This document shows, piece after piece, positions 11,420 through 63,211 of a stretch of 64,000 nucleotides of DNA; within the stretch, counting starts at the first letter, position 1; each line of letters begins with the position of its first letter. Source of the DNA: Okeania sp. SIO2B3 (lineage in GTDB: Bacteria; Cyanobacteriota; Cyanobacteriia; Cyanobacteriales; Microcoleaceae); the NCBI RefSeq assembly GCF_010672525.1, contig NZ_JAAHGH010000030.1:1-64000 (forward strand), given 5' to 3'. Under the pieces are notes generated by a model. The model searched no databases, was not told the origin of the DNA, and saw only the letters and a list, made by a program, of their open reading frames with translations. A program made the translations under genes and the position numbers.

Positions 11420-13177
<1,758 letters not shown>

Positions 13178-35840: not shown

Positions 35841-37046
35841 ATGTTATCAAAATTCCTCAAATTGATTAACTGGAAAAATTTTAATACATTTTTATTATTA
35901 ACATTTACCTGGATAGTTATACCTCTATTTTTGGTAGAAATTGTGATGATTGTTTTGGAGCCTTATCTATTTAAAGGTCTCTATCAGTATGATTCAGATT
36001 TAGGATTTAGAGTGCGACCTTATATTAATGGAAACAATCAATTTGGTTTTAACGATAGAGATTATCTTTTACAAAAAGACCAGAATAAATTTCGCTTGTT
36101 AGTAGTTAGTGATTCGTTTAATTGGGCTGGTGGAAAGGAGGGAAATTATACGGCTTTGTTGGAGAAAAAATTTGAGAATTATTATGGTCAAAATCAGGTT
36201 GATGTGATTAATGTTGGCTATCCAGGAACTCATACTGGGGAGCAATTAGCTATGTTGAAAAAGTACGGGTTACAATATAATCCAGATTTGGTAGTATTGG
36301 GTTTTTTTGTTGGTAATGATTTTCGGGATGCTGACCCGGAAAGAAAACGAATTATTGTCAATGGTATCTATATAGATATAGATAAGAAAGATGAATTAAT
36401 TCTTTTTGGTTATCCGATTATTGGTAGGTCTAGATTGTTGATGTTTTTACAGCAAAAATATCAAGTTTACCAAGAATTACAAAGGGCTAAACAGGATTCT
36501 GCCCAGTTATCTAGTAGTTCTCTAGTCGCTAGTTTTAATTTGGCATCAGCTCCAATTATTGAACGGGAAAAATCACCGGGAATTTTATCTGAAAAAGCTT
36601 TTCTGCGGGTAGAAAAAAGTAGGCTAAAGTTCTGTAAGATTAGAGATTTACTTGAGGGTAAGCGAGACGATAATATTAACTATATTTTTCAGAGTATTTC
36701 AGAAATGCAAGCCTTATTAGAGTCTCGAAATATTCAGTTTGTTGTGGCAATTTATCCCGATGAATATCAAGTTAATGATGAATTATTGAATGATATTTTT
36801 GCCGAATATGATGATTTGAAGCGAGAGTCTTATAATACGACTTGTCAGCAAGAGATTTTGAGGAAATATTTGGAGGCGAATGGTATTCCTTATATAGATA
36901 TGTTAGATATATTCAGAAGAGAACAAAAAAATCGTCCTTTATACTTACTGAGGGAACCCCATTGGAATAGTGCTGGAAATTTATTAGCTGCTGAGATTTT
37001 GTTCGATTATTTAGTTAAAGATATAGATAAATTTTTTAGGAAATAG
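35841..37046 (+). CDS. SGNH-hydrolase-like membrane protein, subfamily C (C1)
   Basis: The protein is 401 aa. An N-terminal membrane anchor (about 16-40, LLLTFTWIVIPLFLVEIVMI) is followed by an exported SGNH/GDSL domain: block I VVSDSFNW (Ser kept, the Gly of GDS replaced by Ser), block II NVGYPGTHTGEQ, block III GFFVGNDFRD, block V LREPHWNSAGNLLAAEIL. The HWN-x-x-G end resembles AlgJ/AlgX-type enzymes that acetylate or deacetylate exported polysaccharides. The middle (about 190-260) is an insert absent from C2. It is the first of seven SGNH-like genes up to 58.3 kb. The function in glycan modification is inferred. Confidence 0.75.
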   Translation: MLSKFLKLINWKNFNTFLLLTFTWIVIPLFLVEIVMIVLEPYLFKGLYQYDSDLGFRVRPYINGNNQFGFNDRDYLLQKDQNKFRLLVVSDSFNWAGGKEGNYTALLEKKFENYYGQNQVDVINVGYPGTHTGEQLAMLKKYGLQYNPDLVVLGFFVGNDFRDADPERKRIIVNGIYIDIDKKDELILFGYPIIGRSRLLMFLQQKYQVYQELQRAKQDSAQLSSSSLVASFNLASAPIIEREKSPGILSEKAFLRVEKSRLKFCKIRDLLEGKRDDNINYIFQSISEMQALLESRNIQFVVAIYPDEYQVNDELLNDIFAEYDDLKRESYNTTCQQEILRKYLEANGIPYIDMLDIFRREQKNRPLYLLREPHWNSAGNLLAAEILFDYLVKDIDKFFRK

Positions 37047-39457: not shown

Positions 39458-41250
39458 CCTGATAAAACACTAAGATTTTGACCATTCTTATTAACTATAT
39501 GAACACCAGGAATTTGATAAAATTTAGCAGTATCTGTATCTAATGCCCAAGCTTTAACATTAATATTTCCTTGGGGAAATTTATGGGTAGATAATACCTT
39601 TTGCCATCCTGACTTAAAGTATTTTTGACTCTTAAATTCTTTCACCAGATAAGGTCTTGATATTGTCATATCTGCCACAGCAGAAACAATAGATTCACCT
39701 TGAGAATTGTCATAACTCAAAACAATGGCATCTACAGGTAAACCCGTATCAGTAAATATTGCCCAACCAGTCGCTAGTAAATTATTACCACCAATGAATT
39801 CTAACTTCTCAAAAATACCTTTTACTTCTCTCTCATTATTAGTATCTACAAGGTCTTGAATACGATTAGTTTGAATTAAACCAGGATGTAAAAAACCCAT
39901 TTCTGTTAAGTAACGCGCCCGCTGTCTGTGAGATTCAAAATAGTAAGAATCAATCAAATTTTGGCAGTTATCGTGAGTAAAATTAATGAGTAATAAACAT
40001 CCTTTATATTTCAAATAATTTTGTCGCCATGATTGCATCTTTTCTATACTGTAGGTAAAATTGTGTATTTGCAGAACAGTTATTATCCCAAGAAACCAGC
40101 AAATTATTTTTGAGAATAGGCTTCTATTAATTAACAAGTATTCTTTTTTTCTCCAATCCTCCCCCACAATTATCATTAAATGAATTATGGAGATAATTAG
40201 ATAAGTGGAAAAGGTTGTATATCTTGAGGAAAGTGCTTGTTCTATACCAAATGAAACTCTACCAAAGGATGTAACTAAGGCACTAATAATTGTATATGAA
40301 CCAAGCATAATCCAACCAATGGTTTGAGACCGAATTTGATGGTCTTTAATCTGCCATAGTACATAAGAACATAAACAAATAAATAGAGTAATAGTTATTG
40401 AGCCAAGAATAATTGAATTATTGAGAGGTTGTATACTACTACCTATACCAAGAGCAGTACCTATAAATGCTAGAAAATATTGAAATATTTGATCTGGATA
40501 TTGAATAGATTCTACTGGATTAGGGTGAGATAATGGCTTTTGATAATCATAAAAATATAAGGCTATATTTGCGATAAATCCAATTATCCAGAGGATATAT
40601 AATTTGATATTTTTTAGTATATCTGACCAAGATTTGAGTTTGGCTAAAGCTAAAACTGGTAAAACAATTACCCAGGCTAATAAACCATTAGCATAAGAGA
40701 AAGTGCTGATGGTTGCCAATAACATACAAATTAAAAATTTCGCTGTATTATTCAGTCGAGAATAAGCAATTAATATACAGGTAGTAATACAAGCGATGGG
40801 AATAAAAACAACTATTTGGATACCCCATAACCAATTTTCATATTGCACGGCAGAAAATATAAAAATATTAGATACTAATGCTATAGTCAGACTTTTGATA
40901 GAGGAGGTATTAATTGTTAATCGATTTAAAAGATAAATATTTATAGCAACTATACAGGCAAGTAAAAATATGACTAACATTTCATATCTAATATTCCATT
41001 TTGTCAGAAATGCTAGGGCAATAAAAATTAGTCTGGGGAAAAATTTTCTGCTTTCATTATGCTGTGCCATTAAATCGTTGAAAGACAAAGTTCTCATATT
41101 AACTTTTTCAAAGACAGCAGCAATTTGCCATTGGTCTTGAATAGGTACATTCAAACTATACTTAAGAATAAGAATTCCTAGAACTATAGCTGGAATTATC
41201 GCTAAACATAAATTTATTCCTAAAACTAATTTAGAATGAGTACGTTGCAT
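39451..41250 (-). CDS. Polytopic membrane protein, glycosyltransferase-like
   Basis: The protein is 599 aa. About ten or more hydrophobic helices fill residues 10-400, then a soluble C-terminal region of about 190 residues (NFTHDNCQNLIDSYYFESHR ... AWALDTDTAKFYQIPGVH). The N-terminal pattern (NVPIQDQWQIAAVFEKV, MAQHNESRKFFPRLI) with acidic and His residues after the first helix resembles large lipid-linked-sugar glycosyltransferase-like membrane proteins, but I cannot name the family firmly. Its place among SGNH genes suggests work on an exported glycan. Its last codons are overlapped by a MITE-A. Confidence 0.55.
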   Translation of the reverse strand: MQRTHSKLVLGINLCLAIIPAIVLGILILKYSLNVPIQDQWQIAAVFEKVNMRTLSFNDLMAQHNESRKFFPRLIFIALAFLTKWNIRYEMLVIFLLACIVAINIYLLNRLTINTSSIKSLTIALVSNIFIFSAVQYENWLWGIQIVVFIPIACITTCILIAYSRLNNTAKFLICMLLATISTFSYANGLLAWVIVLPVLALAKLKSWSDILKNIKLYILWIIGFIANIALYFYDYQKPLSHPNPVESIQYPDQIFQYFLAFIGTALGIGSSIQPLNNSIILGSITITLFICLCSYVLWQIKDHQIRSQTIGWIMLGSYTIISALVTSFGRVSFGIEQALSSRYTTFSTYLIISIIHLMIIVGEDWRKKEYLLINRSLFSKIICWFLGIITVLQIHNFTYSIEKMQSWRQNYLKYKGCLLLINFTHDNCQNLIDSYYFESHRQRARYLTEMGFLHPGLIQTNRIQDLVDTNNEREVKGIFEKLEFIGGNNLLATGWAIFTDTGLPVDAIVLSYDNSQGESIVSAVADMTISRPYLVKEFKSQKYFKSGWQKVLSTHKFPQGNINVKAWALDTDTAKFYQIPGVHIVNKNGQNLSVLSGN

Positions 41251-43284: not shown

Positions 43285-44349
43285 ATGAAAAGATTTTTTT
43301 CGATCCTCCGTCAAACAGCAATTATTTCTTTAATAACTTTTGGCTTAACAGAAGTCACATTCAGAATTTATCACAAAATTAATCCATCTTTTATGTTTTA
43401 CGACCCCTCATCTTATAATCGTTGGCGTGGGAAACCATTATCTACAGATTATGATTTCCAATTAAATTCTCGAGGATTTAAAGATGTAGAATTTAGCAAA
43501 CAAAAAGCAGAAGGTACATATAGAATTCTAGGTATAGGTGATTCTTTTGCTTATGGAGGTATTCCCTACAAACATAATTTTCTAACTCTATTGGAGTCAA
43601 AACTTAATCAAGATAGTCAGCAACCAATAGAATTAATTAATATGGGAATAATTGCTATTGGGCCAAAAGATTATTTATCCCTATTAGTGAATGAAGGATT
43701 AGAATTAAATCCTGATATGGTGTTGTTATCTTTTTATATCGGAAATGATTTTTCTGATAACTATAAATCACAACAAGACCGAAGATTACTTAAAGTTCAA
43801 GATTCTTATGTTTTCTCATTTTTTGATTTTCTAATTAAGGTGAATAGTAAGTTTGAAGGTAATCTTTATCATCATAATATTGAGTATCGAGAAGATTTAC
43901 CTACTTCACCGGATGACTTTCATCTGGAAGAGGCAAAAAAGAGGAGTTATATTTTTCTTAAAAATCCTGAAGAAACTGAATTTAAAGAACATTTTAATGA
44001 TGCTTTGGGCGACTTATTAAAAATTAAAGAAATCTGCGATCGCAGAAATATTACTTTAGTGGTAGTTTTAATGCCTGACGAAGTACAAGTTATCAAAGAA
44101 TTAAGAGATAAAGTAGTTGCTAGTTACAATTTTACTCCAGATAAATTTGATTTTCGACAACCTAATAAATTATTATCTCAAGCACTTATCAAAAATAATA
44201 TATATTATCTTGATATTGTTGAAGAATTTGTGACTGCGGGTACTCAAACTTCTCTCTACAAACCTAATGATATTCATTGGAATATTGCTGGTAATAGATT
44301 AGCTGCTGAAGTAATAGATAAGTATCTCTCTGAAGATTTTTTTCAGTAG
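43285..44349 (+). CDS. SGNH-hydrolase-like membrane protein, subfamily C (C2)
   Basis: The protein is 354 aa. Residues about 8-28 form the anchor; then come block I GIGDSFAYGG, block II NMGIIAIGPKDYL, block III SFYIGNDFSDN and block V KPNDIHWNIAGNRLAAEVI, with the D-x-H-W-N arrangement known from AlgX-like acetyltransferases/esterases. All catalytic positions are present, so it should be active on an exported substrate. It shares the subfamily with C1, but is shorter. Its promoter-leader and first 34 codons have been copied three times upstream. Confidence 0.78.
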   Translation: MKRFFSILRQTAIISLITFGLTEVTFRIYHKINPSFMFYDPSSYNRWRGKPLSTDYDFQLNSRGFKDVEFSKQKAEGTYRILGIGDSFAYGGIPYKHNFLTLLESKLNQDSQQPIELINMGIIAIGPKDYLSLLVNEGLELNPDMVLLSFYIGNDFSDNYKSQQDRRLLKVQDSYVFSFFDFLIKVNSKFEGNLYHHNIEYREDLPTSPDDFHLEEAKKRSYIFLKNPEETEFKEHFNDALGDLLKIKEICDRRNITLVVVLMPDEVQVIKELRDKVVASYNFTPDKFDFRQPNKLLSQALIKNNIYYLDIVEEFVTAGTQTSLYKPNDIHWNIAGNRLAAEVIDKYLSEDFFQ

Positions 44350-44805: not shown

Positions 44806-46263
44806 TCATTCCCCGTTCTTCCTGTCTCCTGTATCCTGTCTCCTGTCTCCTAACTCTACTGATTGATTTTGATTTGGAGCAAGTATATTAAAGATTGAAT
44901 TAGCTATATATTCAGACAAAATATTTTCTCCAGCTTTCGTGTAATGGCAACAACTATCAATATAAACTATCTCTTTAGCATTATCTAAAATATTCACACC
45001 ATTGAAAATATTCACACTATTCTGTTTTAAATCATCTATCTTACTAAAAAGCACTGGATACCCCAATTCTGTTGCTTCTTTAAAAGGAGTATCAGAGTCA
45101 AAAGCAATTTTCTTTTCTGCTTCACTGTAAATTCTATTAGTGGGATAATATTGATTTGGCTGTAGAACATGAAAATATAAAATATTATTATTAGCAGCAA
45201 TTTGCTTCATCATTATAGATGCTTTTTTCCAATGTTCTGCCATAGTCTCATATAATTCTGATTTTTCTAGTTGAGGAGATTGTGCATAGAAATAAACGAT
45301 ACTAGCTTCAGTTTCTCCCGCAGCTTGTTGAGCTGCTTTTTTCCTTTCTTTATCAAATATTTTGACATTTTTACGATAGGTAGTTGCTAGATTTTGTACA
45401 TAAATTGATGTTAAAGCATAACAGTAAGCTACTTGACACTTATCTAAAGTTTCTAAAGCATCTTTCAATTTACTTTTACTGTCGTTAATTTTTAACATTG
45501 CTCTAATAGATTTTGTCGAGAGACTATTATTCGCTATGTTGGTTAACGGCACAACATGATTGGTACTTGGCATCATAATATCAATATTATTTTTATTGTT
45601 TGCTTTTGCCAAAATTACCTCATTAAACCCATCTATATTGATGAGCATATCAAATTCTTGACCGATGGAGAGAAAGTAGTTTAATAGTATTAATTGTTGC
45701 GGTTGTTTATAGCCCCCTGTGGCAAAAGATAAGATAATAAATTCCTTATCTTGAAGTTCTGGAACTTGCTTTAATTTATTGACCAAAATTTGATTCTGAA
45801 TTTCATATATTGAATAATTAGAGGCAACTGAACCACCAAAAACTCCGATTATATATTGATTATCACTCTTTTTTTGATAGGGATAATCATAAGGAGAAAT
45901 AAAACCAGCAGCATTGTATTTAAACCCTTCTCGAAAATCTGGTCCTGGTTTTTGAACATAGCCAAAGTAAGGATGCAGTCTTTCTATTACAGAATCTTCT
46001 AACCTAATTCCTGCTAAATTTATTCCCATCATATTGGTATTGACATTAGCATTATTATTTTCATTTTCTGCTTGATTTTCTTGTTCTTCCTCTTGATTGG
46101 TTTCTGCCACCTTTTCTCTAGTGTAGAAAAATTGCTTATACCTGATAAAATACCAAGCCAAAGAACCTAATTCCAAAAAGATAAATAGCAAAATTATGTT
46201 AATCAAAATAATTTTCCATAGTTCTTTGGAATCTTTGAACATACCTAGTTTTTTCATAGTCAT
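44806..46263 (-). CDS. SGNH-hydrolase-like membrane protein, subfamily B (B1)
   Basis: The protein is 485 aa. The anchor is at about 16-36 (IILINIILLFIFLELGSLAW), then an Asn/Glu-rich stretch (QEEEQENQAENENNNANVNT). SGNH blocks: IIGVFGGSVASN (GGS instead of GDS, Ser kept), SFATGGYKQPQQ, INIDGFNEV with the block III Asn, and IDSCCHYTKAGENILSEYI with the Asp and His of block V. It resembles B2 at 50.9 kb over its length. The last about 14 residues (GDRRQDTGDRKNGE) are encoded by the ctcctgt repeats that begin here, so the original stop was lost. ATG two codons on (46257) is equally possible. Confidence 0.72.
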   Translation of the reverse strand: MTMKKLGMFKDSKELWKIILINIILLFIFLELGSLAWYFIRYKQFFYTREKVAETNQEEEQENQAENENNNANVNTNMMGINLAGIRLEDSVIERLHPYFGYVQKPGPDFREGFKYNAAGFISPYDYPYQKKSDNQYIIGVFGGSVASNYSIYEIQNQILVNKLKQVPELQDKEFIILSFATGGYKQPQQLILLNYFLSIGQEFDMLINIDGFNEVILAKANNKNNIDIMMPSTNHVVPLTNIANNSLSTKSIRAMLKINDSKSKLKDALETLDKCQVAYCYALTSIYVQNLATTYRKNVKIFDKERKKAAQQAAGETEASIVYFYAQSPQLEKSELYETMAEHWKKASIMMKQIAANNNILYFHVLQPNQYYPTNRIYSEAEKKIAFDSDTPFKEATELGYPVLFSKIDDLKQNSVNIFNGVNILDNAKEIVYIDSCCHYTKAGENILSEYIANSIFNILAPNQNQSVELGDRRQDTGDRKNGE

Positions 46264-48234: not shown

Positions 48235-49464
48235 CTACTGACTCCTGACTCCTGTGAAATCATACATTTTGCACAAATAATTTGACATTATTTCCCCCAC
48301 AAATTTATGACCTTCTATATTCCAATGACCTCCACAAGGTTCTGCATTATCAAATCCATATAAACACTTACCTGTTTTTTGCGCTTCATCTGCTAATGGT
48401 CCAGATAAAATATAAACTGGAATATTTTCTTGTTTACCAAACGCTTCTATTCTCCGGTCTGGATAATATAAATCTGACAAATTATGAGAATTTTTAAATT
48501 TTTCACGGTGTTCCAAACTGGGATGCACCTGATGAGAATCACTAACTGCAATTAACATAAAATCTCCATTCTTTTCATAGACTTCATCCCTCATTAACCG
48601 AATTAAATCTTCCGTTACTTTCCAAGCTTGATCCCAGTCAGAATTTGATTCAGGTTTTCGATAAAAAGAAACAATAGTTTTGCCATAATCATTTAAAAAT
48701 TGACGTGGTTTAGCATCCATATCAACCTTTCTAATTAGCTGTAAAATTCGGGAATTTTTGACTAACCAAATTGGTAATATATCAACCATTGAAAAAACAT
48801 AACGACCTCTTGACCAAGGTTTCATTGTCCGGAATGACATATCTAATTCTAACTGACCATTTTTATAGACAAAATAAGGTCTGAGATGGTCGTGGTCAAG
48901 AGGACGATAATTATTCCGGAGGTCGTTACCGGCATAAAAAGCTAATATTACTAAATCTGGTGAATAATCCCAAACATGATGCCTTAAAGTCATCAATTCT
49001 TGAGCTGTTCCATAACCCTGTACGCCAAAATTCATTACCTCAACTTTTCGGTCTTTCAAGACAGGACATTGTTGTAATTTTTGCTCCATAATTGCACCAT
49101 AAGTATCCTCCAATTTGACATGAAATGCTTCTGTAAAAGAATCTCCTAATAAAGCAATTCTTAATCCATTTTCAGGTTGAGTTTTACTACGTTCATAATC
49201 ACGAAACCCTCCACTATTCATTTTTAATTCTGAAGGTATACCTTCTCCTTTCCAAAATGCTGTAGCATTAGGATTTCCTGCCCAACCTCTATTTGGATCT
49301 TTAGTAGTATATAGAGATTTATTTTCTGATTTTTCATCTGTTCTGGGTGGTGGGGGATATGCAATTCCTAATATTCTTAATCCTACTTCTACCACTATCA
49401 CAGCAAATATAAATGTAACTATTGTTATTCCTATATTTACTGCTAAATTTTGTCGCTTTTTCAT
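48235..49464 (-). CDS. SGNH-hydrolase-like membrane protein, subfamily A (A1)
   Basis: The protein is 409 aa. The anchor is at about 8-30 (VNIGITIVTFIFAVIVVEVG), then a Pro-rich turn (YPPPPRTDEK). Block I is IALLGDSFTEA, block II MNFGVQGYGTAQEL, block III LAFYAGNDLRNN and block V PCGGHWNIEGHKFVGEI. The His is kept but the usual Asp two or three residues before it is missing (C-G-G-H). Large GDSL-type members of this plan include SxtL of saxitoxin clusters. Residues about 72-183 are nearly identical to A2, while the rest is far more different. Substrate unknown; an exported glycan or lipid ester is likely. Confidence 0.75.
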   Translation of the reverse strand: MKKRQNLAVNIGITIVTFIFAVIVVEVGLRILGIAYPPPPRTDEKSENKSLYTTKDPNRGWAGNPNATAFWKGEGIPSELKMNSGGFRDYERSKTQPENGLRIALLGDSFTEAFHVKLEDTYGAIMEQKLQQCPVLKDRKVEVMNFGVQGYGTAQELMTLRHHVWDYSPDLVILAFYAGNDLRNNYRPLDHDHLRPYFVYKNGQLELDMSFRTMKPWSRGRYVFSMVDILPIWLVKNSRILQLIRKVDMDAKPRQFLNDYGKTIVSFYRKPESNSDWDQAWKVTEDLIRLMRDEVYEKNGDFMLIAVSDSHQVHPSLEHREKFKNSHNLSDLYYPDRRIEAFGKQENIPVYILSGPLADEAQKTGKCLYGFDNAEPCGGHWNIEGHKFVGEIMSNYLCKMYDFTGVRSQ

Positions 49465-50891: not shown

Positions 50892-52244
50892 CTAATTTTT
50901 CTCTTGATTCTCCATTACATTTTTGATGGAATTAGCAACAAAATTTTCTAAAATTGTATCTCCAAGAAAATTATAGTGGCAGCAAGCATCTCGATAAACT
51001 ACTTCTTTTTCTTCATCAAAAATATTCACACCATTAAATATATTGACCTTCGCTTCTCGTAACCCACTAATCTTAGAAAATAACATGGGATAACCTTTTT
51101 TTACTCCTGTTGAATAAGGATGTCCTTCAATAATTAGAACCTTTTCTTCCGGGCTAAAAACTCTTTCAGTAGGATAATATTGATTGGGTTGAATAAAGTG
51201 AAAATACCATTTATTTCTCTCGGCTAAAATATGACTCATTGTTAGTGATGATTCATACCAATTTTCTGCTATCTTCTCAAAAGCCACCTCATCTTCTAAT
51301 ACTTCAGGCATCTTATTCAAATGTACTAGACTGTTACTATCAAGAGTTTGAGAATTTCGAGCTATCTGTCGATCGTATTTAATAATCTCTTTTTGATAGC
51401 TTTCTAATAATCCTTTTACTTGCAAACTTCTCAAACTATGACACGAAGCTAGTTTACAACTTTCTAATTTATTAATAGCAGTTGATAAACTCTGTTTCAA
51501 TTCGCTAATTTGAACAATTGCCTTCATTACAGACAAATCATCACTAGCTAACCTTGTTAAAGGTAAAATATGTTGTATGCTTGGCAGAGTTAATTTTATT
51601 TTTGCTTGATTATTTTGATGAGATAGAGCTACTTCATTAAAACCATCTATATTGATAACCATATCAAATTCTTGGCCGATAGAAAGAAAATAATTTAAAA
51701 TCAATAATTGCTGTGGTTGTTTATAACCTCCCCCCGAAAAACATAGGATGATTATTTCTTTATCTGCTAACTCAGGTATCGTTTTTAAGTTATTGATAAA
51801 TTCTTCATTACCTCTGGATTGATTAATATTCAGACCGACGGCAAAATTATTCGCAACTGAACCGCCAAATATACCAATAATAAATTGATTCTTATTGTTT
51901 TTAATAAAAGGATAATTGTACTGAGAGACAAAACCATAATTATTAATTCTTATTCCCGATTCTTCATGGGTAAAACTTCCTGCTTTTAGTACATAGCCAA
52001 AAAACGGATGTATTCGCTCTAGTATTGATTCATTATTTAAATCTGCACCCAGTCTGGTTCCAGTTTTTTCCAAGTCTTCTCTTACTTTGGAAATAGTATT
52101 TTCTCTCGTATAAAATAGTCTATTTTCCTGAGAATAATAAAAACCTAATGATACAATCTCTAACCCTATAAATCCTAAAACTAAGTTAATAGTAACTAGA
52201 CTGAATCCTGTTTTGATTCCTTGTATCCATTTAAAATTTTTCAT
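50892..52244 (-). CDS. SGNH-hydrolase-like membrane protein, subfamily B (B2)
   Basis: The protein is 450 aa. The anchor is at about 12-34 (TGFSLVTINLVLGFIGLEIV). SGNH blocks: IIGIFGGSVANN, LCFSGGGYKQPQQ, INIDGFNEVAL, and DACCHYNFLGDTILENFVAN. The Asp-x3-His and the GGS nucleophile region match B1. It lacks the Asn-rich segment and the repeat-derived tail of B1 and ends at NSIKNVMENQEKN, which is probably the original end of the subfamily. It lies upstream of A1 on the same strand, as A2 lies upstream of B2. Confidence 0.72.
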   Translation of the reverse strand: MKNFKWIQGIKTGFSLVTINLVLGFIGLEIVSLGFYYSQENRLFYTRENTISKVREDLEKTGTRLGADLNNESILERIHPFFGYVLKAGSFTHEESGIRINNYGFVSQYNYPFIKNNKNQFIIGIFGGSVANNFAVGLNINQSRGNEEFINNLKTIPELADKEIIILCFSGGGYKQPQQLLILNYFLSIGQEFDMVINIDGFNEVALSHQNNQAKIKLTLPSIQHILPLTRLASDDLSVMKAIVQISELKQSLSTAINKLESCKLASCHSLRSLQVKGLLESYQKEIIKYDRQIARNSQTLDSNSLVHLNKMPEVLEDEVAFEKIAENWYESSLTMSHILAERNKWYFHFIQPNQYYPTERVFSPEEKVLIIEGHPYSTGVKKGYPMLFSKISGLREAKVNIFNGVNIFDEEKEVVYRDACCHYNFLGDTILENFVANSIKNVMENQEKN

Positions 52245-52980: not shown

Positions 52981-54201
52981 TTACCTTTTGCTTAATTGAG
53001 TAGTATATCGTTCACACAAATAATTTGTCATTATTTCTCCTACAAATTTATGACCTTCTATATTCCAATGACCTCCACAAGGAACCGCATTATCAAAACC
53101 ATGCAAACATTTACCCGTTTTTTTTGCTTCATCCCAATAGGTCCTTCTAAAAGTATAAACTGGTATATTTTCCTGTTTACCAAACTTTTTTAATCGGATA
53201 TCTGGATAGAATAAATTTGGTACATTCAAAGATTTTCTAAATCCATCACGCTTTTGAATATCCGGTAAAACTTGATAAGAATCACTGGTTGTTATTACCA
53301 TAAAATCTGCCCCTTGATCATATACTTCATCCCTCATTAGTTTGATTAAACCTTCAGTGACTTTCCAGGTTTCTTCCCAATCTGAATTTGGTTGTGGTTC
53401 TTTGTAAAAAGCTAGATTAATGTCACTATAATCTTTTTCAAACTGACGGCGTTTAGCATCAATATCTACCTTTCTAATTAGTTGTAAAATCCGAGAATTT
53501 TGCACAGACCAAAATGGTAAAAAATCTACTAGAGAAAAATTATAACGGTCTCTATCCCAAAATTTTAAATCGCGGAATGACATATCTTCAACAAGTTGAC
53601 CATCTTGGTAAACAAAATAAGGTCTGAGATGATCGTGTTCTAAAGCGCGATAATTATTACGGAGGTCATTACCAGCATAAAAAGCTAATATTACTAAATC
53701 TGGTGAATAATCCCAAACATGATGCCTTAAAGTCATCAATTCTTGAGCTGTTCCATAACCCTGTACGCCAAAATTCATTACCTCAACTTTCCGGTCTTTC
53801 AAGACAGGACATTGTTGTAATTTTTGCTCCATAATTGCACCATAACTATCCTCCAATTTGACATGAATTGCTTCTGTAAAAGAATCTCCTAATAAAGCAA
53901 TTCTTAATCCATTTTTAGGTTGAGTTTTACTACGTTCATAATCACGAAATCCTCCACTATTCATTTTCAGCTCAGAAGGTATGCCTTCTCCTGTCCAAAA
54001 TGATGTTTGATTCGGATTTCCTGCCCAACCTCTATTCGGATCTTTTGCTGTATATAAAAGTTCTTGATTAGATTCTTCTCTTGGTGGTGGAGGTGTTTCT
54101 ATTTTTGCTATTCTTAAACCTATTTCTGCCACTGTTACAGCAAATATTAATGTGCTGACTGTTAATCCTAAATTGATGGCTAAATTCTTAAATTTTTTCA
54201 T
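52981..54201 (-). CDS. SGNH-hydrolase-like membrane protein, subfamily A (A2)
   Basis: The protein is 406 aa. The anchor is at about 8-30 (INLGLTVSTLIFAVTVAEIG). Blocks: IALLGDSFTEA, MNFGVQGYGTAQEL, LAFYAGNDLRNN, PCGGHWNIEGHKFVGEI. As in A1, the Asp before the block V His is absent. The frame reaches 54252, but the ATG at 54201 (MKKFKNLAINLG) aligns with A1 (MKKRQNLAVNIG) and is chosen. The central region is almost identical to A1 at DNA level, but the C-terminal half is only moderately similar. Confidence 0.75.
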   Translation of the reverse strand: MKKFKNLAINLGLTVSTLIFAVTVAEIGLRIAKIETPPPPREESNQELLYTAKDPNRGWAGNPNQTSFWTGEGIPSELKMNSGGFRDYERSKTQPKNGLRIALLGDSFTEAIHVKLEDSYGAIMEQKLQQCPVLKDRKVEVMNFGVQGYGTAQELMTLRHHVWDYSPDLVILAFYAGNDLRNNYRALEHDHLRPYFVYQDGQLVEDMSFRDLKFWDRDRYNFSLVDFLPFWSVQNSRILQLIRKVDIDAKRRQFEKDYSDINLAFYKEPQPNSDWEETWKVTEGLIKLMRDEVYDQGADFMVITTSDSYQVLPDIQKRDGFRKSLNVPNLFYPDIRLKKFGKQENIPVYTFRRTYWDEAKKTGKCLHGFDNAVPCGGHWNIEGHKFVGEIMTNYLCERYTTQLSKR

Positions 54202-54252
54202 TATATAAAGGTTAGTTGAGCAAGAAATTATTCTTAGTTTTAGTATTGACAA

Positions 54253-55381: not shown

Positions 55382-56903
55382 ATACCATTTCTTTTTGACA
55401 TCCTCCCCGGCTGTTAGGCACGGGGATTCCTACCGAGCCGTAACTCCTCGGCGGGTTGACGTCTCACAGGCTGCTGCACCCACCCCTTTTGCTCCCCTCC
55501 CGGGAGGGGATGGGGGTGGGTTACACTTGCCTCCACGTCCGTTTCTTGCTCCGCGTTCCCTTGCGCCTTTCGGCGGCGCGGGTTCGGTGCGCTTTTTTGT
55601 CTCGGACTGCCCGCCCGCGACTAATATATTTATTGCTGCATTCTCGTCTAAGAACATGTTTTGCACCGCAGTTGAGACACTCCCATTCTCGCACCTTCAG
55701 GTCTAACTTTCCACCTTTGAATCCACAGCTAGAGCAAGTTTGAGATGTGGGTTCAAGGGCGATTAATTACTCTAAAATCACGACCATATTTTTCTGCTTT
55801 CCCTTCTAAGAATGTCCGTATGGGTTCTCCAACCTAAATCAGAAATTGCTCTGGATAATTTACGGTTTTTCACCATACCAGAAACGTTGTTATACTTCTA
55901 AAACAACTGTTTGGTTTTCACGAATTATTTCAGTAGATAATTTATGTAGAAAATCTGTTCTTGTATCTTTCAGTTTGCCATTGAATTTAGCTACTCTAAT
56001 CCTGGCTTTTTCATACCTCTTAGAGCCTTTAGTTTTATGAGATAATGACTTACTTAACTTTCTTAACTTCTTAATTCGTTTCTTTAGTGGCTTAGGATCA
56101 TCAACCTTTGTACCGTCACTAAATGTAGCAAAGGTTTTAATACCTAAATCTATACCTACTGAGTTATCAGTTTTAGGTAAAATTTCTGGTTGTATTTCTA
56201 CTACAAAACTCAAGAAATATCTATGAGCTGAATCTTTAATTACTGTTACTGATGATGGAGGAGCAGGTAACTCTCTTGACCATACTATTTTCAGCTTTCC
56301 AATCTTAGCTAAATAAACTTTGTGTTGACCAACTTTAAATCCTCACGAGTGTAAACCTCGCAGTTTGCTTTGACTTTCTACTTTTAAATTTAGGAGGTTT
56401 AATAGGTCTACCTTTTCTTTGACCTTTAGTCGATCTAAAAAAGTTTTGATAAGCCTGGTTTAAATCATTCAATGATTGCTGCAATGGTATAGCAGAAACC
56501 TCTGATAACCACTCTCTATTTTCAGTTTTTTTAGCAGATGTGATCAACTGTTTTTCTAGTTCAGAATTAGTGGGTTTATTTTCTTCTAGTTTATACTTTT
56601 CTTGGCAGGAAGCTAGACTATCATTCCAAACCACACTGACACAACCAAATAGCTTGGCTAATTGGTGTTTTTGCCCCGTTGTTGGATAAATACGATACCT
56701 AAATCTAGCTTTCATAATTCCTATCTGAACTAGCACTATGATAACATATTTATTAAAAAAAACAACCAAAAAGTCGCCCGCTTATGGGCGAGGCTTTAAA
56801 CCCAATTTTTTGGTAACAATGCGCTTAATAATTGTTGCTCAGACCTTATTACACTAACTATTCTCATCTTTATATTAAGTGCAACTTCATGGAGAAATGG
56901 TAT
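55382..56903. mobile_element. R5 element split by an IS200/IS605-type insertion
   Basis: R5 begins ATACCATTTCT at 55382-55392 and resumes at about 56812 (ggtaacaatgcgcttaataa, ttgctcagacctta, ttctcatctttatattaagt, ggagaaatggtat), exactly as the reverse complement of the intact R5 at 50005. The inserted DNA is about 55393-56811. Its left end here (ttttgacatcctccccggct...cacggggattccta) is the tnpB 3' end side; the other end has the hairpin tcgcccgcttatgggcga at about 56773-56790. Confidence 0.7.
55430..56715 (-). pseudogene. tnpB, IS200/IS605 family, frameshifted
   Basis: The N-terminal part (56335-56715) starts MKARFRYRIYPTTGQKHQLA and runs through PLQQSLNDLNQAYQNFFRST. The next part (55890-56334) carries the RuvC-I motif DNSVGIDLGIKTFATFSDGT and the bridge-helix-like KKRIKKLRKLSKSLSHKTKG. 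After a shift near 55890 the frame decays: NRKLSRAISDLGWRTH, NPHLKLALAVDSKVE with stops, then VQNMFLDENAAINI, which keeps the last acidic motif (DENAAIN). At least three lesions. The ribosome-binding and hairpin end sequences are still recognisable. Confidence 0.75.
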
Positions 56904-57127: not shown

Positions 57128-58330
57128 CTATAACCCCTGACATAACTTTTCAGCAATAATTTCACCTGCCAACTTATGTCCTATAGCATTCCAATGTCCC
57201 GTACACATTGTCGTATTTTTAAACCCATGAAAACAAACAGGATTTTCCCGAACATAATTATCAAAAGGTTCCACTAAATCAATCACAGAAAAATTATGAG
57301 TTTCTCCTAAACTTTTCAGTCTTTTTATTGGATATGACCAGTCTTTAATATTCATAATTTTCATATATCCTTCTCGCCATTCTTGATTTGGATGAACTTG
57401 CATCGGAGTCATCACTGTAGCTATTCTAAATTCTGCACCTTTTTCTTGTACTTCTTTTGCCATAGTTCCGATTAGTTCATCAGTAATTTTCCAAGCTTCT
57501 TGCCAAGCAGAATTTGGCGGTTCTCTAAAATTATTTGCTTGTAAATTTTCAAAGTGTCTAGCAGCATTTCTCTTCTTTTGGTCTGCCTCTACTTTTTTGA
57601 TAATTTGTAAAATTCTGACATTATTTACTAGCCAAGTTGGTAATTTATCGACTGTAGTAATCATGTAGCGGTTTGCTTGACTAATAGTTAGCTGTCTAAA
57701 AGATAAATCTAATTCTAACTTCCCATTTTCATAAACAAAAAAAGGTCGATAATGATTATTTTCTAACTTTCGAGAATTATCTGTAACATCATTGCCAATA
57801 AAAAAAGCTAAAAGCACAATATCAGGCTGAAAATCCCAGACTTTTTCTCGGAGAGTTAATAATTGTTGGGCTGTACCATAACCATCCACTCCAAAATTAA
57901 TTACCTCTACTTTTTGACTTTTTAAATCGGTACATTTTCCCAATTCTTTCTCCATGACTGCTACAAAAGTTTGCTGATAAGAAACCTGCACTGCTGAAGT
58001 AAAAGAATCTCCAAGTACAGCAATTCTTAGAGTATTTTCTGGTTTTGCCTTAGTAATTTCCGGTCCTCTAAGACCATGACTATTAAACTCTAAATAAGCC
58101 TTCCCTTCACTCGTCCACCAACCAGAAACATTTCCTCTATATTCCCAACCTCTAACAGGATGAGGAATAGTATGAAACGTAGGATAAAATTCTGCGTGGG
58201 TACTTTCAGGCATTTTTTTTAAACCCTCCAAACCAGCAATTCTTGCTCCTACTTCAGCGATCGCTACCCCAACAAATAAACTGGCGAAAATCATACCTAA
58301 ATTTACCGCCAAAGTTTTTAGTTTAATCAT
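57128..58330 (-). CDS. SGNH-hydrolase-like membrane protein, subfamily A (A3), SxtL-like position
   Basis: The protein is 400 aa. The anchor is at about 6-28 (LAVNLGMIFASLFVGVAIAE). Blocks: IAVLGDSFTSA, INFGVDGYGTAQQL, LAFFIGNDVTDN, MCTGHWNAIGHKLAGEI. The block V Asp is again missing (C-T-G-H). It is the most divergent A member. Upstream on the same strand, beyond a minisatellite, are sxtK-like and sxtJ-like genes, so this gene holds the place that sxtL (GDSL lipase) has in saxitoxin clusters. The three may form one transcript. There is no sign of toxin genes. An acyl-transfer or deacylation role is inferred. Confidence 0.75.
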   Translation of the reverse strand: MIKLKTLAVNLGMIFASLFVGVAIAEVGARIAGLEGLKKMPESTHAEFYPTFHTIPHPVRGWEYRGNVSGWWTSEGKAYLEFNSHGLRGPEITKAKPENTLRIAVLGDSFTSAVQVSYQQTFVAVMEKELGKCTDLKSQKVEVINFGVDGYGTAQQLLTLREKVWDFQPDIVLLAFFIGNDVTDNSRKLENNHYRPFFVYENGKLELDLSFRQLTISQANRYMITTVDKLPTWLVNNVRILQIIKKVEADQKKRNAARHFENLQANNFREPPNSAWQEAWKITDELIGTMAKEVQEKGAEFRIATVMTPMQVHPNQEWREGYMKIMNIKDWSYPIKRLKSLGETHNFSVIDLVEPFDNYVRENPVCFHGFKNTTMCTGHWNAIGHKLAGEIIAEKLCQGL

Positions 58331-58429
58331 CCTCTCAGCTATAATTTTTTTGTATTTTGATCGTGTAGATTGGGTTGAGGAAAATTAGCGGAGTTTATCC
58401 GCAGGATAAACCCAACTTTTCAGTTAACA

Positions 58430-59572
58430 GTTATCAGTTAACAGTTATCAGTACCTCTAGCTGAAATCTTCTGCTGGAAATGCTGATAGCTGAATGCTTA
58501 CCTGAAAAACATATTTTTTATCCTCTCAAAAGCAGAGAGTATTTACCCAAAATTTTCGGTAATTTCAGTTATCACTACCTCTAGCTAAAACCTTCTGCTA
58601 GAAATGGAAATATAGAATATTCTCTTTTTTTTATCCCCTCAAAAGCAGAGACTATTTACCCAAAATTTTCCGTAACTTCAGTTATCAGTACCTCTAGCTA
58701 AAACCTTCTGCTAAAAATGGAAATTCAGTTATCAGTACCTCTAGCTAAAATCTTCTGCTAGAAATGGAAATATAGAATATTCTCTTTTTTTTATCCTCTC
58801 AAAAGCAGAGAGTATTTACCCAAAATTTTCGGTAATTTCAGTTATCACTACCTCTAGCTAAAATCTTCTGCTAGAAATGGAAATATAGAATATTCTCTTT
58901 TTTTTATCCCCTCAAAAGCAGAGACTATTTACCCAAAATTTTCCGTAACTTCAGTCATCAGTACCTTTAGCTAAAACCTTCTGCTAAAAATGGAAATTCA
59001 GTTATCAGTACCTCTAGCTAAAACCTTCTACTAGAAATGAAAATATAGAATATTCTCTTTTTTTCTCCTCTCAAAAGCAGAGACTATTTACCCAAAATTT
59101 TCCGTAACTTCAGTCATCAGTACCTTTAGCTAAAACCTTCTGCTAGAAATGGAAATAAAGCAGAGACTATTTACCCAAAATTTTCCGTAACTTCAGTCAT
59201 CAGTACCTTTAGATAAAACCTTCTGCTAGAAATGGAAATATAGAATATTCTCTTTTTTTCTCCCCTCAAAAGCAGAGACTATTTACCCAAAATTTTCCGT
59301 AACTTCAGTCATCAGTACCTCTAGCTAAAACCTTCTGCTAAAAATGGAAATTCAGTTATCAGTACCTCTAGCTAAAACCTTCTGCTAGAAATGGAAATAT
59401 AGAATATTCTCTTTTTTTCTCCTCTCAAAAGCAGAAGCTATTTACCCAAAATTTTCCGTAACTTCAGTTATCAGTACCTTGAGCTAAAACCTTCTACTAG
59501 AAAGATAGAATATTCTCTTTTTTTTATCCCCTCAAAAGCAGAAGCTATTTACCCAAAATTTTCCGTCAAGGA
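58430..59572. repeat. Minisatellite with 112-bp and 46-bp units
   Basis: The phrase tttacccaaaattttc occurs nine times, starting at 58542, 58655, 58815, 58928, 59087, 59170, 59282, 59441 and 59548, giving spacings of 113, 160, 113, 159, 83, 112, 159 and 107. A long unit (about 112 bp) alternates with long plus short (about 160 bp). The unit holds tcagttatcagtacctctag, ctaaaaccttctgctagaaa and tatagaatattctcttttt. tctagc...gctaga inside each unit can form a stem with an 11-nt loop. It lies between the sxtK-like gene and A3. Confidence 0.9.
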
Positions 59573-59635
59573 AGAAATAGGTAAAGTTCAAAAAAAAAAC
59601 TTTTTCCTTTCTTCTTTACTGCCAGCATAGCCAGA

Positions 59636-59800
59636 TTAAAACAAAGTATAAATAAACGGAGCAATTACAGAAGACTGACTCAGAACAATCAAAGCTCCTA
59701 ACAAAACTAAAGTAATAATCAAAGGCAATAACCAATACTTTTTCCTCTCTCCCATAAAACCCCAAAGGTCTTTGAGAAAGTCTAATATTCCTTCAAACAT
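59636..59800 (-). CDS. sxtK: DUF5989 small membrane protein, SxtK-like
   Basis: A 54-aa protein too short for most gene calls. It starts MFEGILDFLKDLWGFMGERK, has one membrane helix (KYWLLPLIITLVLLGALIVL) and ends SQSSVIAPFIYTLF. This is the plan of DUF5989/SxtK proteins: an amphipathic start, GERKKYWL, one helix, and the S-S-x-I-APFIYTLF end. The ATG follows directly on the stop codon of the sxtJ-like gene (TAAATG), so translation is probably coupled. SxtJ and SxtK often accompany carbamoyltransferase genes; their role is unknown. The symbol reflects resemblance only. Confidence 0.85.
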   Translation of the reverse strand: MFEGILDFLKDLWGFMGERKKYWLLPLIITLVLLGALIVLSQSSVIAPFIYTLF

Positions 59801-60214
59801 TTAAAAAGGTCGCTCCATACTTTCTCTAGTTTTTAATTGACTCATCACCCGATAAGTTGAAGTTTCAGTATTCAATTGTCGCTCCATAGGGTCTTTTTTA
59901 AACATTCGCATAATCAAACCCATTGGCATAACTACAAGATAAAACACTAACCCCATCCACAGAGGAGTCATTATTTTACTCAGGAAAATTCCTACCCGCA
60001 TCCAAAACTTATAAACAGGTCCCAAAGTAGGGGGTGAAACAATTGCCAATACCAATAGAGGAGTAGCAATTATCCAAGGCCATGCAGGAGGAGGCCAATG
60101 TCTGTGGAGTAACGGTAGTAATAGACCGAATAAACCACCAAAAACACCACCCACTATTAGACCAAACTCCCTGAGACCCTTCTTATCAATTTTCGGTATC
60201 TCGCGATCGCTCAT
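59801..60214 (-). CDS. sxtJ: SxtJ family membrane protein
   Basis: A 137-aa protein with three to four hydrophobic segments: LREFGLIVGGVFGGLFGLLL, WPWIIATPLLVLAIVSPPTL and PLWMGLVFYLVVMPMGLIMR. The phrase GPVYKFWMRVGIFLSKIMTP and the end FKKDPMERQ are typical of SxtJ. It is the first gene of an apparent J-K-SGNH operon on the minus strand. In saxitoxin clusters sxtI (O-carbamoyltransferase) comes directly before; here about 0.8 kb of gene-poor DNA and an insertion sequence lie upstream instead. The family's biochemical job is not known. Confidence 0.85.
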   Translation of the reverse strand: MSDREIPKIDKKGLREFGLIVGGVFGGLFGLLLPLLHRHWPPPAWPWIIATPLLVLAIVSPPTLGPVYKFWMRVGIFLSKIMTPLWMGLVFYLVVMPMGLIMRMFKKDPMERQLNTETSTYRVMSQLKTRESMERPF

Positions 60215-61150: not shown

Positions 61151-62437
61151 CTATTGCCACGCAACGCACTGTTTACGATATTTTTTAGTTAGATTCTCTA
61201 ACTTGTATCGTTGTGGAAGCATCAAAACTTCCCTACTAACCTTGGCTAAGTCAATACTTAGCTGTGTTGCTACTTTTTTGATAATATTAGCTGCACCGTT
61301 AGCATCTGCATTAATCAATTTACCTGTTGCCGAACGGTACAAGCCACGGTTAACACGCTTTCCTGATGCTTCCCACCTTTCGGGTTTTTCACCAAATTTC
61401 GGCAGAAAATCATCATCTAAAAAACTAGCTTTACTCGTATAGCTTTCCTCAGTCTCAACGAACTTAATCCCATACTGCTCAGATAATTCAGTTATCCTGG
61501 CTTTTAACTTGGCTGTTGGTATTTGAACAAACTGTTGGTTATTTTTCTTACCTATGTTAATACTGTCTTTTTGGCGTTGATTCCACCCAAAAACTATTGT
61601 ACCTATTTGATGCTCAATACACCAGTTGATAACAAATCTGGCTGCTTTGTTCACATTATCCCGCATCTGACGATTGCGCTTTTCAGTGATAGCGGCTAAT
61701 TTATTATCCCAATAGTCACCAGGCTTACCTGCTTTGATTTTTGCTACTTGTTTGTTGTACCATTGATTTTGAGATTTAACCTTTCTTCCATCAACTATAA
61801 AAGCCTTCCCCACATTACTCACACAAGTTAACCAGTTATTTAATCCTGGGTCAATACCCAAAACATTTTCTGCTATTGGCTGACCTTTTTCTGGCTGTGG
61901 TTGCTCATAAGCAAATTCTAGATAGAAACAGTTATTTCTAGGGACGAACCTAAATTCTTTGATCTGATTAAAGTCTAAGTTACCAGGCATTGGTAGCAAG
62001 AAATGGTCAATGCCAAACCACGCTTTTACTTGCTTACCTAGAGGAAACTTAAGCATCCCATTAACTAACTTAACCCATCGTGCCGGGTAACTAACAACTG
62101 CTAAACCATCCTTTTTACGATATTTTGGTGGTTTTGGCTTCTGTACTAGCTCTCCCGATTTGAACATTTTAGCTAGTTTGGCATAGGAGTTAAAGGACTC
62201 AATTACAGAGTGCAGTGTTTGTTGGGCACAGGCTGAACGCATTGCCTTAAAATGCGGATTACTTTTTAATTCAAAATCTAGTTCGGTTTTAGATAGAAAG
62301 CGTCCTGCTTTAAACAGCATTTGACGACAATAGTAAAGCCCACAATTTGTCAACTTATTTGCTTCTGTGCATAAATACTCAAGCACAGCCATTACTTCTG
62401 AGTTACTCTTGACTAGGTGTTGTTGACATCCATACAT
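61151..62437 (-). CDS. TnpB-like RNA-guided nuclease without zinc ribbon
   Basis: The protein is 428 aa with an uninterrupted frame. RuvC-I is LGIDPGLNNWL (Asp196), the RuvC-II region FVETEESYTSKASFLD (Glu about 330), and RuvC-III INADANGAANI (Asp378), so the nuclease triad looks intact. The usual Cys4 zinc ribbon between II and III is missing and replaced by LPKFGEKPERWEASGKRVNR. A basic N-terminal half (PKPPKYRKKDGLAVVSYPAR) would bind RNA/DNA. A perfect aggagg ribosome-binding site lies at 62447-62452, nine bases before ATG. It diverges from a tnpA pseudogene, as in IS605-type elements. Probably active as guide-dependent nuclease that favours keeping the element. Confidence 0.8.
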   Translation of the reverse strand: MYGCQQHLVKSNSEVMAVLEYLCTEANKLTNCGLYYCRQMLFKAGRFLSKTELDFELKSNPHFKAMRSACAQQTLHSVIESFNSYAKLAKMFKSGELVQKPKPPKYRKKDGLAVVSYPARWVKLVNGMLKFPLGKQVKAWFGIDHFLLPMPGNLDFNQIKEFRFVPRNNCFYLEFAYEQPQPEKGQPIAENVLGIDPGLNNWLTCVSNVGKAFIVDGRKVKSQNQWYNKQVAKIKAGKPGDYWDNKLAAITEKRNRQMRDNVNKAARFVINWCIEHQIGTIVFGWNQRQKDSINIGKKNNQQFVQIPTAKLKARITELSEQYGIKFVETEESYTSKASFLDDDFLPKFGEKPERWEASGKRVNRGLYRSATGKLINADANGAANIIKKVATQLSIDLAKVSREVLMLPQRYKLENLTKKYRKQCVAWQ

Positions 62438-62495: not shown

Positions 62496-62923
62496 ATGTT
62501 TGCGCAGCATGACCTAGGAAAGAAAAAACCAGATGAATATAGAAAAAATCCTCACTCAGTAACACTGATTAATTACCCTGCATGTATTTTGTCCCAAGCG
62601 TAGAAAGTTTCTCTTAGTAGGAGATGTCAAGCAAAGGCTACAAGAGATTATTTTTGAGCTATGTACTGAGCATGATTGGAGACTAATAGCATTAGAAATA
62701 ATGCCAGACCATGTACATTTATTTTTAGAAGTTGACCCCACTTTTGCTCCATCAGTAATAATTAAGCGCCTCAAAGGTAGAGCTTCACATCATTTGAGGA
62801 AAGAATTTCCGCTTATTACTAAAATTACCTACGCTTTGGACTCCTAGCTTTTTTTGTGCAACAACAGGAAACGCTTCAACGGAGACTCTCAGGAAGTACA
62901 TTGAAAGCCAAACCGGAAAGTAA
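62496..62923 (+). pseudogene. tnpA, HUH (Y1) transposase of IS605, frameshifted
   Basis: Three frames together give a full TnpA: DEYRKNPHSVTLINY, then FCPKRRKFLLVGDVKQRLQE and ALEIMPDHVHLFLEV with the HUH pair (H-V-H), and after a second shift PTLWTPSFFCATTGNAS and LRKYIESQTGK with the catalytic Tyr. Lesions lie near 62575 and 62825. The nearest in-frame ATG (62496) lies inside a copy of the dispersed repeat R2 (tgtttgcgcagcatgaccta), so the original 5' end has been replaced. The element cannot move by itself. Confidence 0.75.
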
Positions 62924-62931
62924 CTCCGGTT
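62911..62931. other. Terminal hairpin of the IS605-type element
   Basis: aaccgga (62911-62917) pairs perfectly with tccggtt (62925-62931) around a 7-nt loop, overlapping the tnpA stop codon. Subterminal hairpins of this sort are bound by Y1 transposases. The interrupted vapC-like gene resumes right after it, so the element boundary is probably within about 20 bp. Confidence 0.5.
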
Positions 62932-62939
62932 CTTTGCCA

Positions 62940-63211
62940 ACAGATTTTCTTGCAAAAATGCCAAAAAAACAGGAATCATCAAATGGCAAAGATACAAACT
63001 GCCGTAAAAATAATAGTTGTATATTTAAACTCTTTTGAGGATTATTACTGCGTCTTGAGCCATAAAATAATTCGGCTTTGACCACGGAAAAAACAGCAAT
63101 TTTATCTGATTCTAGTCTATGAAAATAATTATTAACGCTAGAGTTTTTGTTTTTCAGATATACAATGCAAACATTCGGATCTAGTAAATAGATTAGAGAA
63201 TTATTACTCAT
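62940..63211 (-). pseudogene. VapC-like PIN-domain toxin, cut by the IS element
   Basis: From ATG at 63211 the frame reads MSNNSLIYLLDPNVCIVYLK, then AVFSVVKAELFYGSRRSNNP and FVSLPFDDSCFFGIFA. This matches the N-terminal two thirds of VapC (Asp in the LLD motif, Glu in VKAELFYG). The T of the usual LLDTN is P here. After about 62940 the frame runs into the IS end, so the C-terminal Asp pair is lost. The start overlaps the stop of the preceding frame by 8 bp (ATGAGTAA), the way antitoxin-toxin genes are coupled. Confidence 0.65.

What the first reader, a model, noticed from the sequence alone, without database searches (positions are those of the whole stretch)
57128..60214. sxtJ-sxtK-SGNH module without carbamoyltransferase or toxin genes
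The order SxtJ, DUF5989/SxtK (54 aa, TAAATG coupling) and an SGNH protein matches sxtJ-sxtK-sxtL of saxitoxin clusters, where sxtI (carbamoyltransferase) precedes. Here no carbamoyltransferase or other toxin gene is in the window, and an IS element lies upstream. J-K-SGNH may thus be a general tailoring or transport unit that the toxin clusters borrowed, and the nearby A1/A2 genes could be its relatives.
Basis: partly seen in the sequence, partly recalled or inferred. Interest (0 to 1): 0.75.

Follow-up and report, generated by a model that had tools for sequence, protein, structure and literature searches.

The report
Widespread membrane-linked carbamoyltransferase gene trio
Two small membrane-protein genes thought to stand alone here sit near their usual enzyme partner just past the edge of the stretch examined, and this three-gene set, best known from a shellfish-toxin pathway, turns up in many unrelated bacteria, which suggests a general way of adding a small chemical group at the cell membrane.

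Summary
The genes are real: SxtJ (59801-60214), DUF5989/SxtK (59636-59800) and an SGNH protein (57128-58330), minus strand. The missing carbamoyltransferase is a window-edge artefact: an intact SxtI-type gene lies at 64319-66301 of the same contig, starting 319 bases past the window, 4.1 kb from SxtJ with a TnpB gene and a VapC fragment between.

I, J and K travel together. Of 292 genomes of the window's phylum, all 41 with an SxtI-type enzyme have K; of 299 genomes of a second phylum, 52 of 54. Of the best 80 of 566 K matches, from about a dozen phyla, 76 loci hold I, J and K, in varying order. I and J are fused in three genomes. An SGNH gene lies within 3 kb in 63 of 106 judgeable loci: a frequent, not constant, partner.

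Most likely J and K dock the carbamoyltransferase at the membrane to modify an exported or membrane-bound molecule, and SGNH acts outside; complex, side and substrate are inferred. That sxtI, J, K and L are shared with Oscillatoriales was published in 2009. The breadth, tight coupling and fusions were not found in the open papers searched.

The parts
59801..60214 (-). SxtJ, 137 aa, three hydrophobic helices (its enzyme partner SxtI lies beyond the window, at contig 64319-66301, minus strand)
   Evidence: PF19588 E 1.3e-13; AlphaFold helices 11-37, 45-59, 61-104, pLDDT 85.6, pTM 0.58; hydropathy; SxtI: PF02543 E 2.2e-126, ORF, solved relatives
59636..59800 (-). SxtK / DUF5989, 54 aa, one clear hydrophobic helix after a basic stretch, conserved end APFIYTLF
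   Evidence: PF19451 E 6.8e-26; alignment of 19; 4.3 K/R before the helix and none after it, mean of 123 matched domains
57128..58330 (-). A3, SGNH protein with a long N-terminal helix that looks like a membrane anchor; Ser109, Asn180 and His379 kept, the Asp before His replaced (C376-T-G-H379)
52981..54252 (-). A2, SGNH, 44% identical to A3
50892..52244 (-). A1, GGS-type SGNH relative, groups with the second SGNH behind K in relatives of the same family
48235..49464 (-). SGNH, 74% identical to A2 (duplicate)
44806..46263 (-). GGS-type SGNH relative, groups with the third SGNH behind K in relatives of the same family
43285..44349 (+). SGNH of another group (with SGNHs found beside SxtI in family f4)
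35841..37046 (+). SGNH of the same other group
58442..59566 (.). tandem array of a roughly 113-bp unit between K and A3, local expansion of a dispersed repeat
61151..62437 (-). TnpB-type RNA-guided nuclease gene inside the I-J gap
   Evidence: NF040570 E 6.9e-48
62876..63211 (-). VapC N-terminal fragment inside the I-J gap
   Evidence: NF047863 E 1.8e-15 over residues 8-80 only, below its cut-off
55400..56805 (-). split TnpB remnant between A3 and A2, absent from the Okeania SIO1I7 locus

Best explanation
The feature is the J-K-SGNH part of a module whose core is SxtI-SxtJ-SxtK: a cytosolic O-carbamoyltransferase plus two small membrane proteins. SxtI is expected to activate carbamoyl phosphate with ATP and put the carbamoyl group on a hydroxyl, as its solved relatives do (family knowledge, recalled, not shown here). 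J and K most likely hold SxtI at the inner membrane, where it modifies a membrane-bound or exported molecule such as a lipid-linked sugar. The SGNH proteins, apparently anchored by an N-terminal helix and facing outwards, would act on the same product outside, trimming or transferring groups. Shown here: presence, order, co-occurrence, fusion and SGNH fold. Inferred: complex, membrane docking, sidedness and substrate. In this genome inserted DNA and repeats have spread the module out, but the frames of I, J, K and A3 are open.
For: Co-occurrence: 41 of 41 genomes of the window's phylum with an SxtI-type enzyme have K; 52 of 54 in a second phylum, with I within 4 kb of K in 50 of 53 K genomes. 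76 of 80 K loci hold I, J and K, in orders IJK 32, JKI 28, IKJ 14, KJI 1, KIJ 1; in the first phylum 37 of 44. I and J in one frame in L044 (1 of 124 loci) and in L165 and L166. Seventeen other carbamoyltransferases have no J or K beside them and score 725 bits or less with a model of the module's enzymes, against 862 or more for the SxtI type (the model was built on the module's enzymes); module enzymes fall in a 50-row clade, support 99/96. J has three hydrophobic helices, K one after a basic stretch. SGNH genes lie near 50 of 93 SxtI-type genes against 2 of 17 others. The Lyngbya wollei toxin cluster with a truncated sxtI lacks sxtL, and the text of its paper does not name sxtJ or sxtK (PMC3037375, passages).
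Against: No interaction, localisation or substrate data. I lies away from J-K in five of the 41 genomes, so one operon is not needed. Exceptions: G400 has I and J but no K was found, G428 has I and no K match, G459 has K without an SxtI-type score; L106 shows J-K without I and L109 a lone K. A survey of neighbours named no pathway (capped lists, no background control). On which side of the membrane the J tail lies is unsettled. A3 lacks the usual Asp before the His. The counts are not corrected for common descent, and many loci come from MAGs.
Confidence: 0.6

Rival explanations
1. Transmembrane relay: SxtI makes the activated carbamoyl group, J-K pass it across the membrane and the SGNH protein puts it on an outer polymer, as MBOAT and SGNH pairs do for acetyl groups (recalled).
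For: SGNH has an anchor-like N-terminal helix, is enriched at SxtI-type enzymes, and sits between J and K in L068, L070, L071, L139 and L141. An A3-family profile also matches AlgJ and AlgX. An MBOAT gene runs into the start of I in L057.
Against: 43 of 106 loci show no SGNH match within 3 kb. The conserved residues of J and K do not look catalytic, apart from one Asp in J. With the L057 query MBOAT was found in that locus only.
Confidence: 0.1
2. J and K are exporters or flippase helpers for the carbamoylated product and not docking proteins for SxtI.
For: Both look like membrane proteins and nearly always travel with the enzyme.
Against: The I-J fusions argue for direct contact with the enzyme; one to three short helices per chain make a transporter less likely. 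A PDB search with the J model gave no match at E 0.001 or better, which decides nothing.
Confidence: 0.15
3. SGNH removes the carbamoyl group again (decarbamoylase), as proposed for SxtL.
For: Published proposal for SxtL (PMC2679770, PMC2885083, passages); SGNH is enriched at SxtI-type enzymes.
Against: The closest solved fold listed is CgnD, which cuts off a leader peptide in the carbamoylated crocagin pathway. If SGNH faces outwards it and SxtI act on opposite sides. The Asp before His is missing in A3.
Confidence: 0.15

Closest known systems
sxtI-sxtJ-sxtK-sxtL part of saxitoxin clusters
   Same: The same four kinds of gene; J and K listed as unknown, decarbamoylation proposed for SxtL (PMC2679770, PMC2684587, passages; gene order as in the finding and in the table of PMC2679770)
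   Different: No toxin gene recognised among the window ORFs; several SGNH genes of different groups; inserted DNA between I and J and repeats between K and SGNH. The toxin cluster's own proteins were not compared here
Solved O-carbamoyltransferases: TobZ (3ven), GdmN (7vyj), decarbamoylnovobiocin carbamoyltransferase (9s2t)
   Same: Two stretches covering both enzyme domains align with the printed chains 9s2t, 7xb6 and 7vyj; TobZ in the table
   Different: Here the enzyme is tied to J and K by co-occurrence; whether those enzymes have such partners was not tested
CgnD, hydrolase of crocagin biosynthesis (8a2n)
   Different: 11% identity; CgnD has Asp325-His328-Ser79, A3 lacks the Asp; whether that cluster holds J or K was not tested
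AlgJ and AlgX of alginate acetylation
   Same: A3-family profile matches them (E 7e-8 and 3.5e-7)
   Different: MBOAT partner seen in L057 only

Membership tests
sxtIJK carbamoylation module | SxtI-type carbamoyltransferase in the genome together with J and K | tested here: met
   I at contig 64319-66301; enzyme in the module clade
sxtIJK carbamoylation module | I, J and K on one strand within 6 kb | tested here: met
   I and J are 4.1 kb apart because of inserted DNA, not directly adjacent
Saxitoxin gene cluster | Core toxin biosynthesis genes around the module | not tested
   None recognised by eye among the window ORFs; no search was made
Saxitoxin gene cluster | A3 and SxtL form one clade | not tested
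   Toxin cluster proteins not fetched (referred step)
NodU/TobZ-type carbamoyltransferases | N-terminal Kae1-like domain and C-terminal YrdC-like domain with the conserved motifs | tested here: met
   Alignments with 9s2t, 7xb6 and 7vyj over both parts, motifs such as hh.aha, eyk.mgla, gpralg and ntsfn kept; domain names recalled
SGNH hydrolases | Catalytic Ser, Asn and His, SGNH fold | tested here: met
   S109, N180, H379 invariant in the seven window SGNHs; SGNH structures match A3
SGNH hydrolases | Asp two or three residues before the His | tested here: not met
   A3 C376-T-G-H379, A2 C-G-G-H; lowers the claim of a classical triad only

The most novel reading that the evidence does not exclude
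I-J-K with SGNH is a transmembrane carbamoylation machine found in about a dozen bacterial phyla, in which J-K hand a carbamoyl group or a carbamoylated carrier across the membrane to outward-facing SGNH enzymes: a carbamoyl counterpart of MBOAT/SGNH acetylation that the toxin pathway, and perhaps the crocagin pathway, took over.
Probability: 0.1. Interest if true: 0.85.

Novelty: new member of a known kind. Interest (0 to 1): 0.5.

Why it matters
SxtJ and SxtK are called unknown in the saxitoxin papers seen here. The present counts make them near-constant partners of one kind of carbamoyltransferase across bacteria, including SAR11, Prochlorococcus and Nitrospira records, and they occur in Sinorhizobium meliloti, as J-K-I with an SGNH gene on pSymB. 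What J and K do can thus be tested in a harmless laboratory organism without any toxin pathway. It also warns that a small conserved pair near a window edge should not be read as partnerless.

Tried and rejected
Neighbour families: I scanned 74 of 80 and 69 of 156 cluster representatives of same-strand, non-SGNH neighbours (choice; alignments). Only the first 25 of 194 and of 112 families are shown; the commonest (GT2, GT4, DegT, hexapeptide, epimerase and others) had 2-3 members each, so no pathway could be named. MBOAT as a regular partner: not shown; one locus with the L057 query, but the family lists were capped and the upstream membrane protein of L054 was not resolved. J fold: no PDB match at E 0.001 or better. 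K in phages: no match in 50,697 records with the phage-like K of L161 as query; L161 is one of two IMG/VR loci found. One origin for the module's SGNH genes: not supported; they fall in several deep groups, many on long, unsure branches. PF02543 score alone as the mark of an SxtI-type enzyme: G333 and G498 scored high but 149-155 bits with the SxtI model, and were dropped before counting 54; most of the other 54 were classed by PF02543 score alone (276 bits or more), only those fetched were checked with the model. S. meliloti locus tags guessed from memory found no paper. Print searches for the generality: (0, 0 and 3 papers; listings of 25 of 4,031, 15 of 18 and 12 of 145 papers), open PMC only; I saw no paper on the trio outside toxin clusters in them.

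Full report
1. What is there. On the minus strand the window holds SxtJ (60214-59801), DUF5989/SxtK (59800-59636, joined to J by TAAATG) and an SGNH protein, A3 (58330-57128). J, K and the carbamoyltransferase were each found once in the 10-Mb genome.

2. The missing enzyme. The contig is 69,115 bases long. The one PF02543 match of the genome, E 2.2e-126, lies at 65210-66247 in a 660-aa frame at 64319-66301, same strand, starting 319 bases past the window end. Two stretches covering both of its domains align with decarbamoylnovobiocin carbamoyltransferase, another carbamoyltransferase (7xb6) and GdmN; TobZ is also matched. So the central claim of the finding, a module without carbamoyltransferase, comes from the window's edge. 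The frames of I, J, K and A3 are open.

3. Why the genes look scattered. The locus of Okeania sp. SIO1I7 (L081) matches at 94-98% in the blocks of I, J-K, A3 and A2-A1. Its I-J gap is about 5.4 kb of mostly other DNA (WD40, solute-binding and GTPase frames; two short matches near J), against 4.1 kb here with TnpB and a VapC fragment. L081 also lacks the TnpB remnant at 55400-56805, and its K-A3 gap shows no match to the window's repeat array (for the proteins). In other genomes of the family the order is compact, I-J-K followed by three SGNH genes. The array between K and A3 is a local expansion of a dispersed repeat: 9 of 51 matches in the genome lie in it.

5. How general the trio is. The window's phylum is Cyanobacteriota, judged by the near-identical Okeania locus. 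K is over the Pfam cut-off in 44 of 292 genomes of it. PF02543 matches split by score: 41 genomes at 331 bits or more, then a gap to 266. All 41 have K. The three K genomes without a full enzyme (G221, G223, G225; L062-L064) show no I, a fragment, or a broken I. In five of the 41 (G014, G076, G080, G093, G106) I lies elsewhere in the genome, yet belongs to the same clade. A second set is 299 genomes of the phylum of L156, a Herbaspirillum record (Pseudomonadota by my knowledge; the tool names no group). There 53 have K and 54 an SxtI-type enzyme, 52 both, and I lies within 4 kb of K in 50 of the 53. The 54 are those at 276 bits or more with PF02543, without G333 and G498, which failed the SxtI model; most were classed by score alone, and G374 is a partial frame at a contig edge. 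Exceptions: G459 has K and PF02543 matches below that limit (best E 4.4e-30); G400 has I and J with no K found; G428 has I and no K match; G552, counted as having both, has a K broken by a stop and I on another contig. These counts treat related genomes as independent.

6. Loci. By models built here, within 6 kb on one strand, J lies near K in 78, I in 77, both in 76. Of the four others, in L102 the contig ends 91 bases behind K, in L151 it starts at K, L106 has J-K without I, and L109 has K alone. Orders were IJK 32, JKI 28, IKJ 14, KJI 1 and KIJ 1. In the 44 loci of the first phylum J was near in 41, I in 37, both in 37, IJK 31 and KJI 6. Conservation of the set with varying order speaks for joint function. 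One frame holds both I and J in L044, 1 of 124 loci, and in L165 and L166, which were fetched because their frames were unusually long; the genomes of these two (G411, G419) each have a second, unfused pair of K and enzyme. A 69-row tree puts the module enzymes in a 50-row clade (99/96). Two rows labelled as module-linked outside it, L103_9684 and L158_12147, are second enzymes beside a full trio. Ten rows inside it have no J or K in the fetched locus: for L171 and L185-L189 J-K lies elsewhere in the genome, L167's genome has K beside another enzyme, L204's has the broken K, and for L190 and L203 none was found.

7. SGNH as a partner. By an A3-derived model, SGNH matches lie in the block or within 3 kb of it in 63 of 106 judgeable loci (24 of 43 and 39 of 63; 18 of 124 had too little flank). 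There were 84 hits near against 32 further off, over 669 kb and 1,098 kb of flank; the near hits include those inside the block, whose length is not in the 669 kb. Measured from the enzyme gene within 2.2 kb, 50 of 93 SxtI-type genes have one against 2 of 17 other carbamoyltransferases; these 17 were picked by me, 12 of them had slightly less than 2.2 kb on one side, and one of the two with SGNH, L190, falls inside the module clade on a long branch. SGNH is thus a favoured, dispensable partner.

8. How it may work. Family knowledge (recalled): these enzymes activate carbamoyl phosphate with ATP and carbamoylate a hydroxyl. J has three hydrophobic helices; the model leaves the side of its tail open. 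K has one clear helix, with 4.3 basic residues before it and none after it on average in 123 matched domains, which places its N-terminus inside by the positive-inside rule. With the I-J fusions, docking of the enzyme to the membrane is the simplest reading. The acceptor is not known; a lipid-linked or exported glycan is a guess that the neighbour survey neither shows nor excludes.

9. What is in print. Saxitoxin papers call J and K unknown; one writes that SxtI acts 'in conjunction with' them, and decarbamoylation is proposed for SxtL (PMC2679770, PMC2885083, passages). A 2009 study already put sxtI, J, K and L among genes shared with Lyngbya and/or Trichodesmium (PMC2684587, passages). The L. 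wollei cluster has a truncated sxtI and no sxtL (PMC3037375, passages). DUF5989 found no paper. So the shared origin is known; the three-gene coupling, its breadth and the fusions were not seen in the searches, three of which gave capped listings.

10. Verdict. The locus is an ordinary, insertion-stretched member of the I-J-K-SGNH module. The module itself is more general and more tightly coupled than the finding supposed, and S. meliloti pSymB offers a clean place to test it.

Noticed in passing
L163 (S. meliloti pSymB, CP073680.1 483075-487277): SGNH gene divergent from J-K-I on the megaplasmid; of 39 plasmid records with a K match 37 are Sinorhizobium or Ensifer.
   Followed up: partly
window 58442-59566: Array of a roughly 113-bp unit between K and A3; the unit is a dispersed repeat with 51 matches in the genome.
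   Followed up: yes
window 55400-56805: TnpB-only element, split frame, absent from the syntenic Okeania locus L081, which reads across at 12790-12803.
   Followed up: partly
L161 5007-5159: Lone 50-aa DUF5989 protein among small frames on an IMG/VR contig; no match in the named phage records.
   Followed up: partly
L062, L063, L064: Apparently decaying modules in small cyanobacterial genomes: K cut short with no I or J, I reduced to a fragment, or I broken into frames.
   Followed up: no
L175 5429-5867: Two DUF5989 genes in tandem beside one I and one J.
   Followed up: no
window 39451-41250 and L050 2926-5208: Large membrane proteins with weakly similar C-terminal parts (blastp E 2e-6); the L050 one lies directly upstream of SxtI.
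   Followed up: no
window 62701-63211: Fragment that reads like a transposase (62701-62847, by eye only) and a VapC N-terminal fragment in the I-J gap.
   Followed up: no
L164 (Leisingera plasmid): J-K at the very end of a circular record, with flippase, GT4 and sulfotransferase genes within 12 kb.
   Followed up: no
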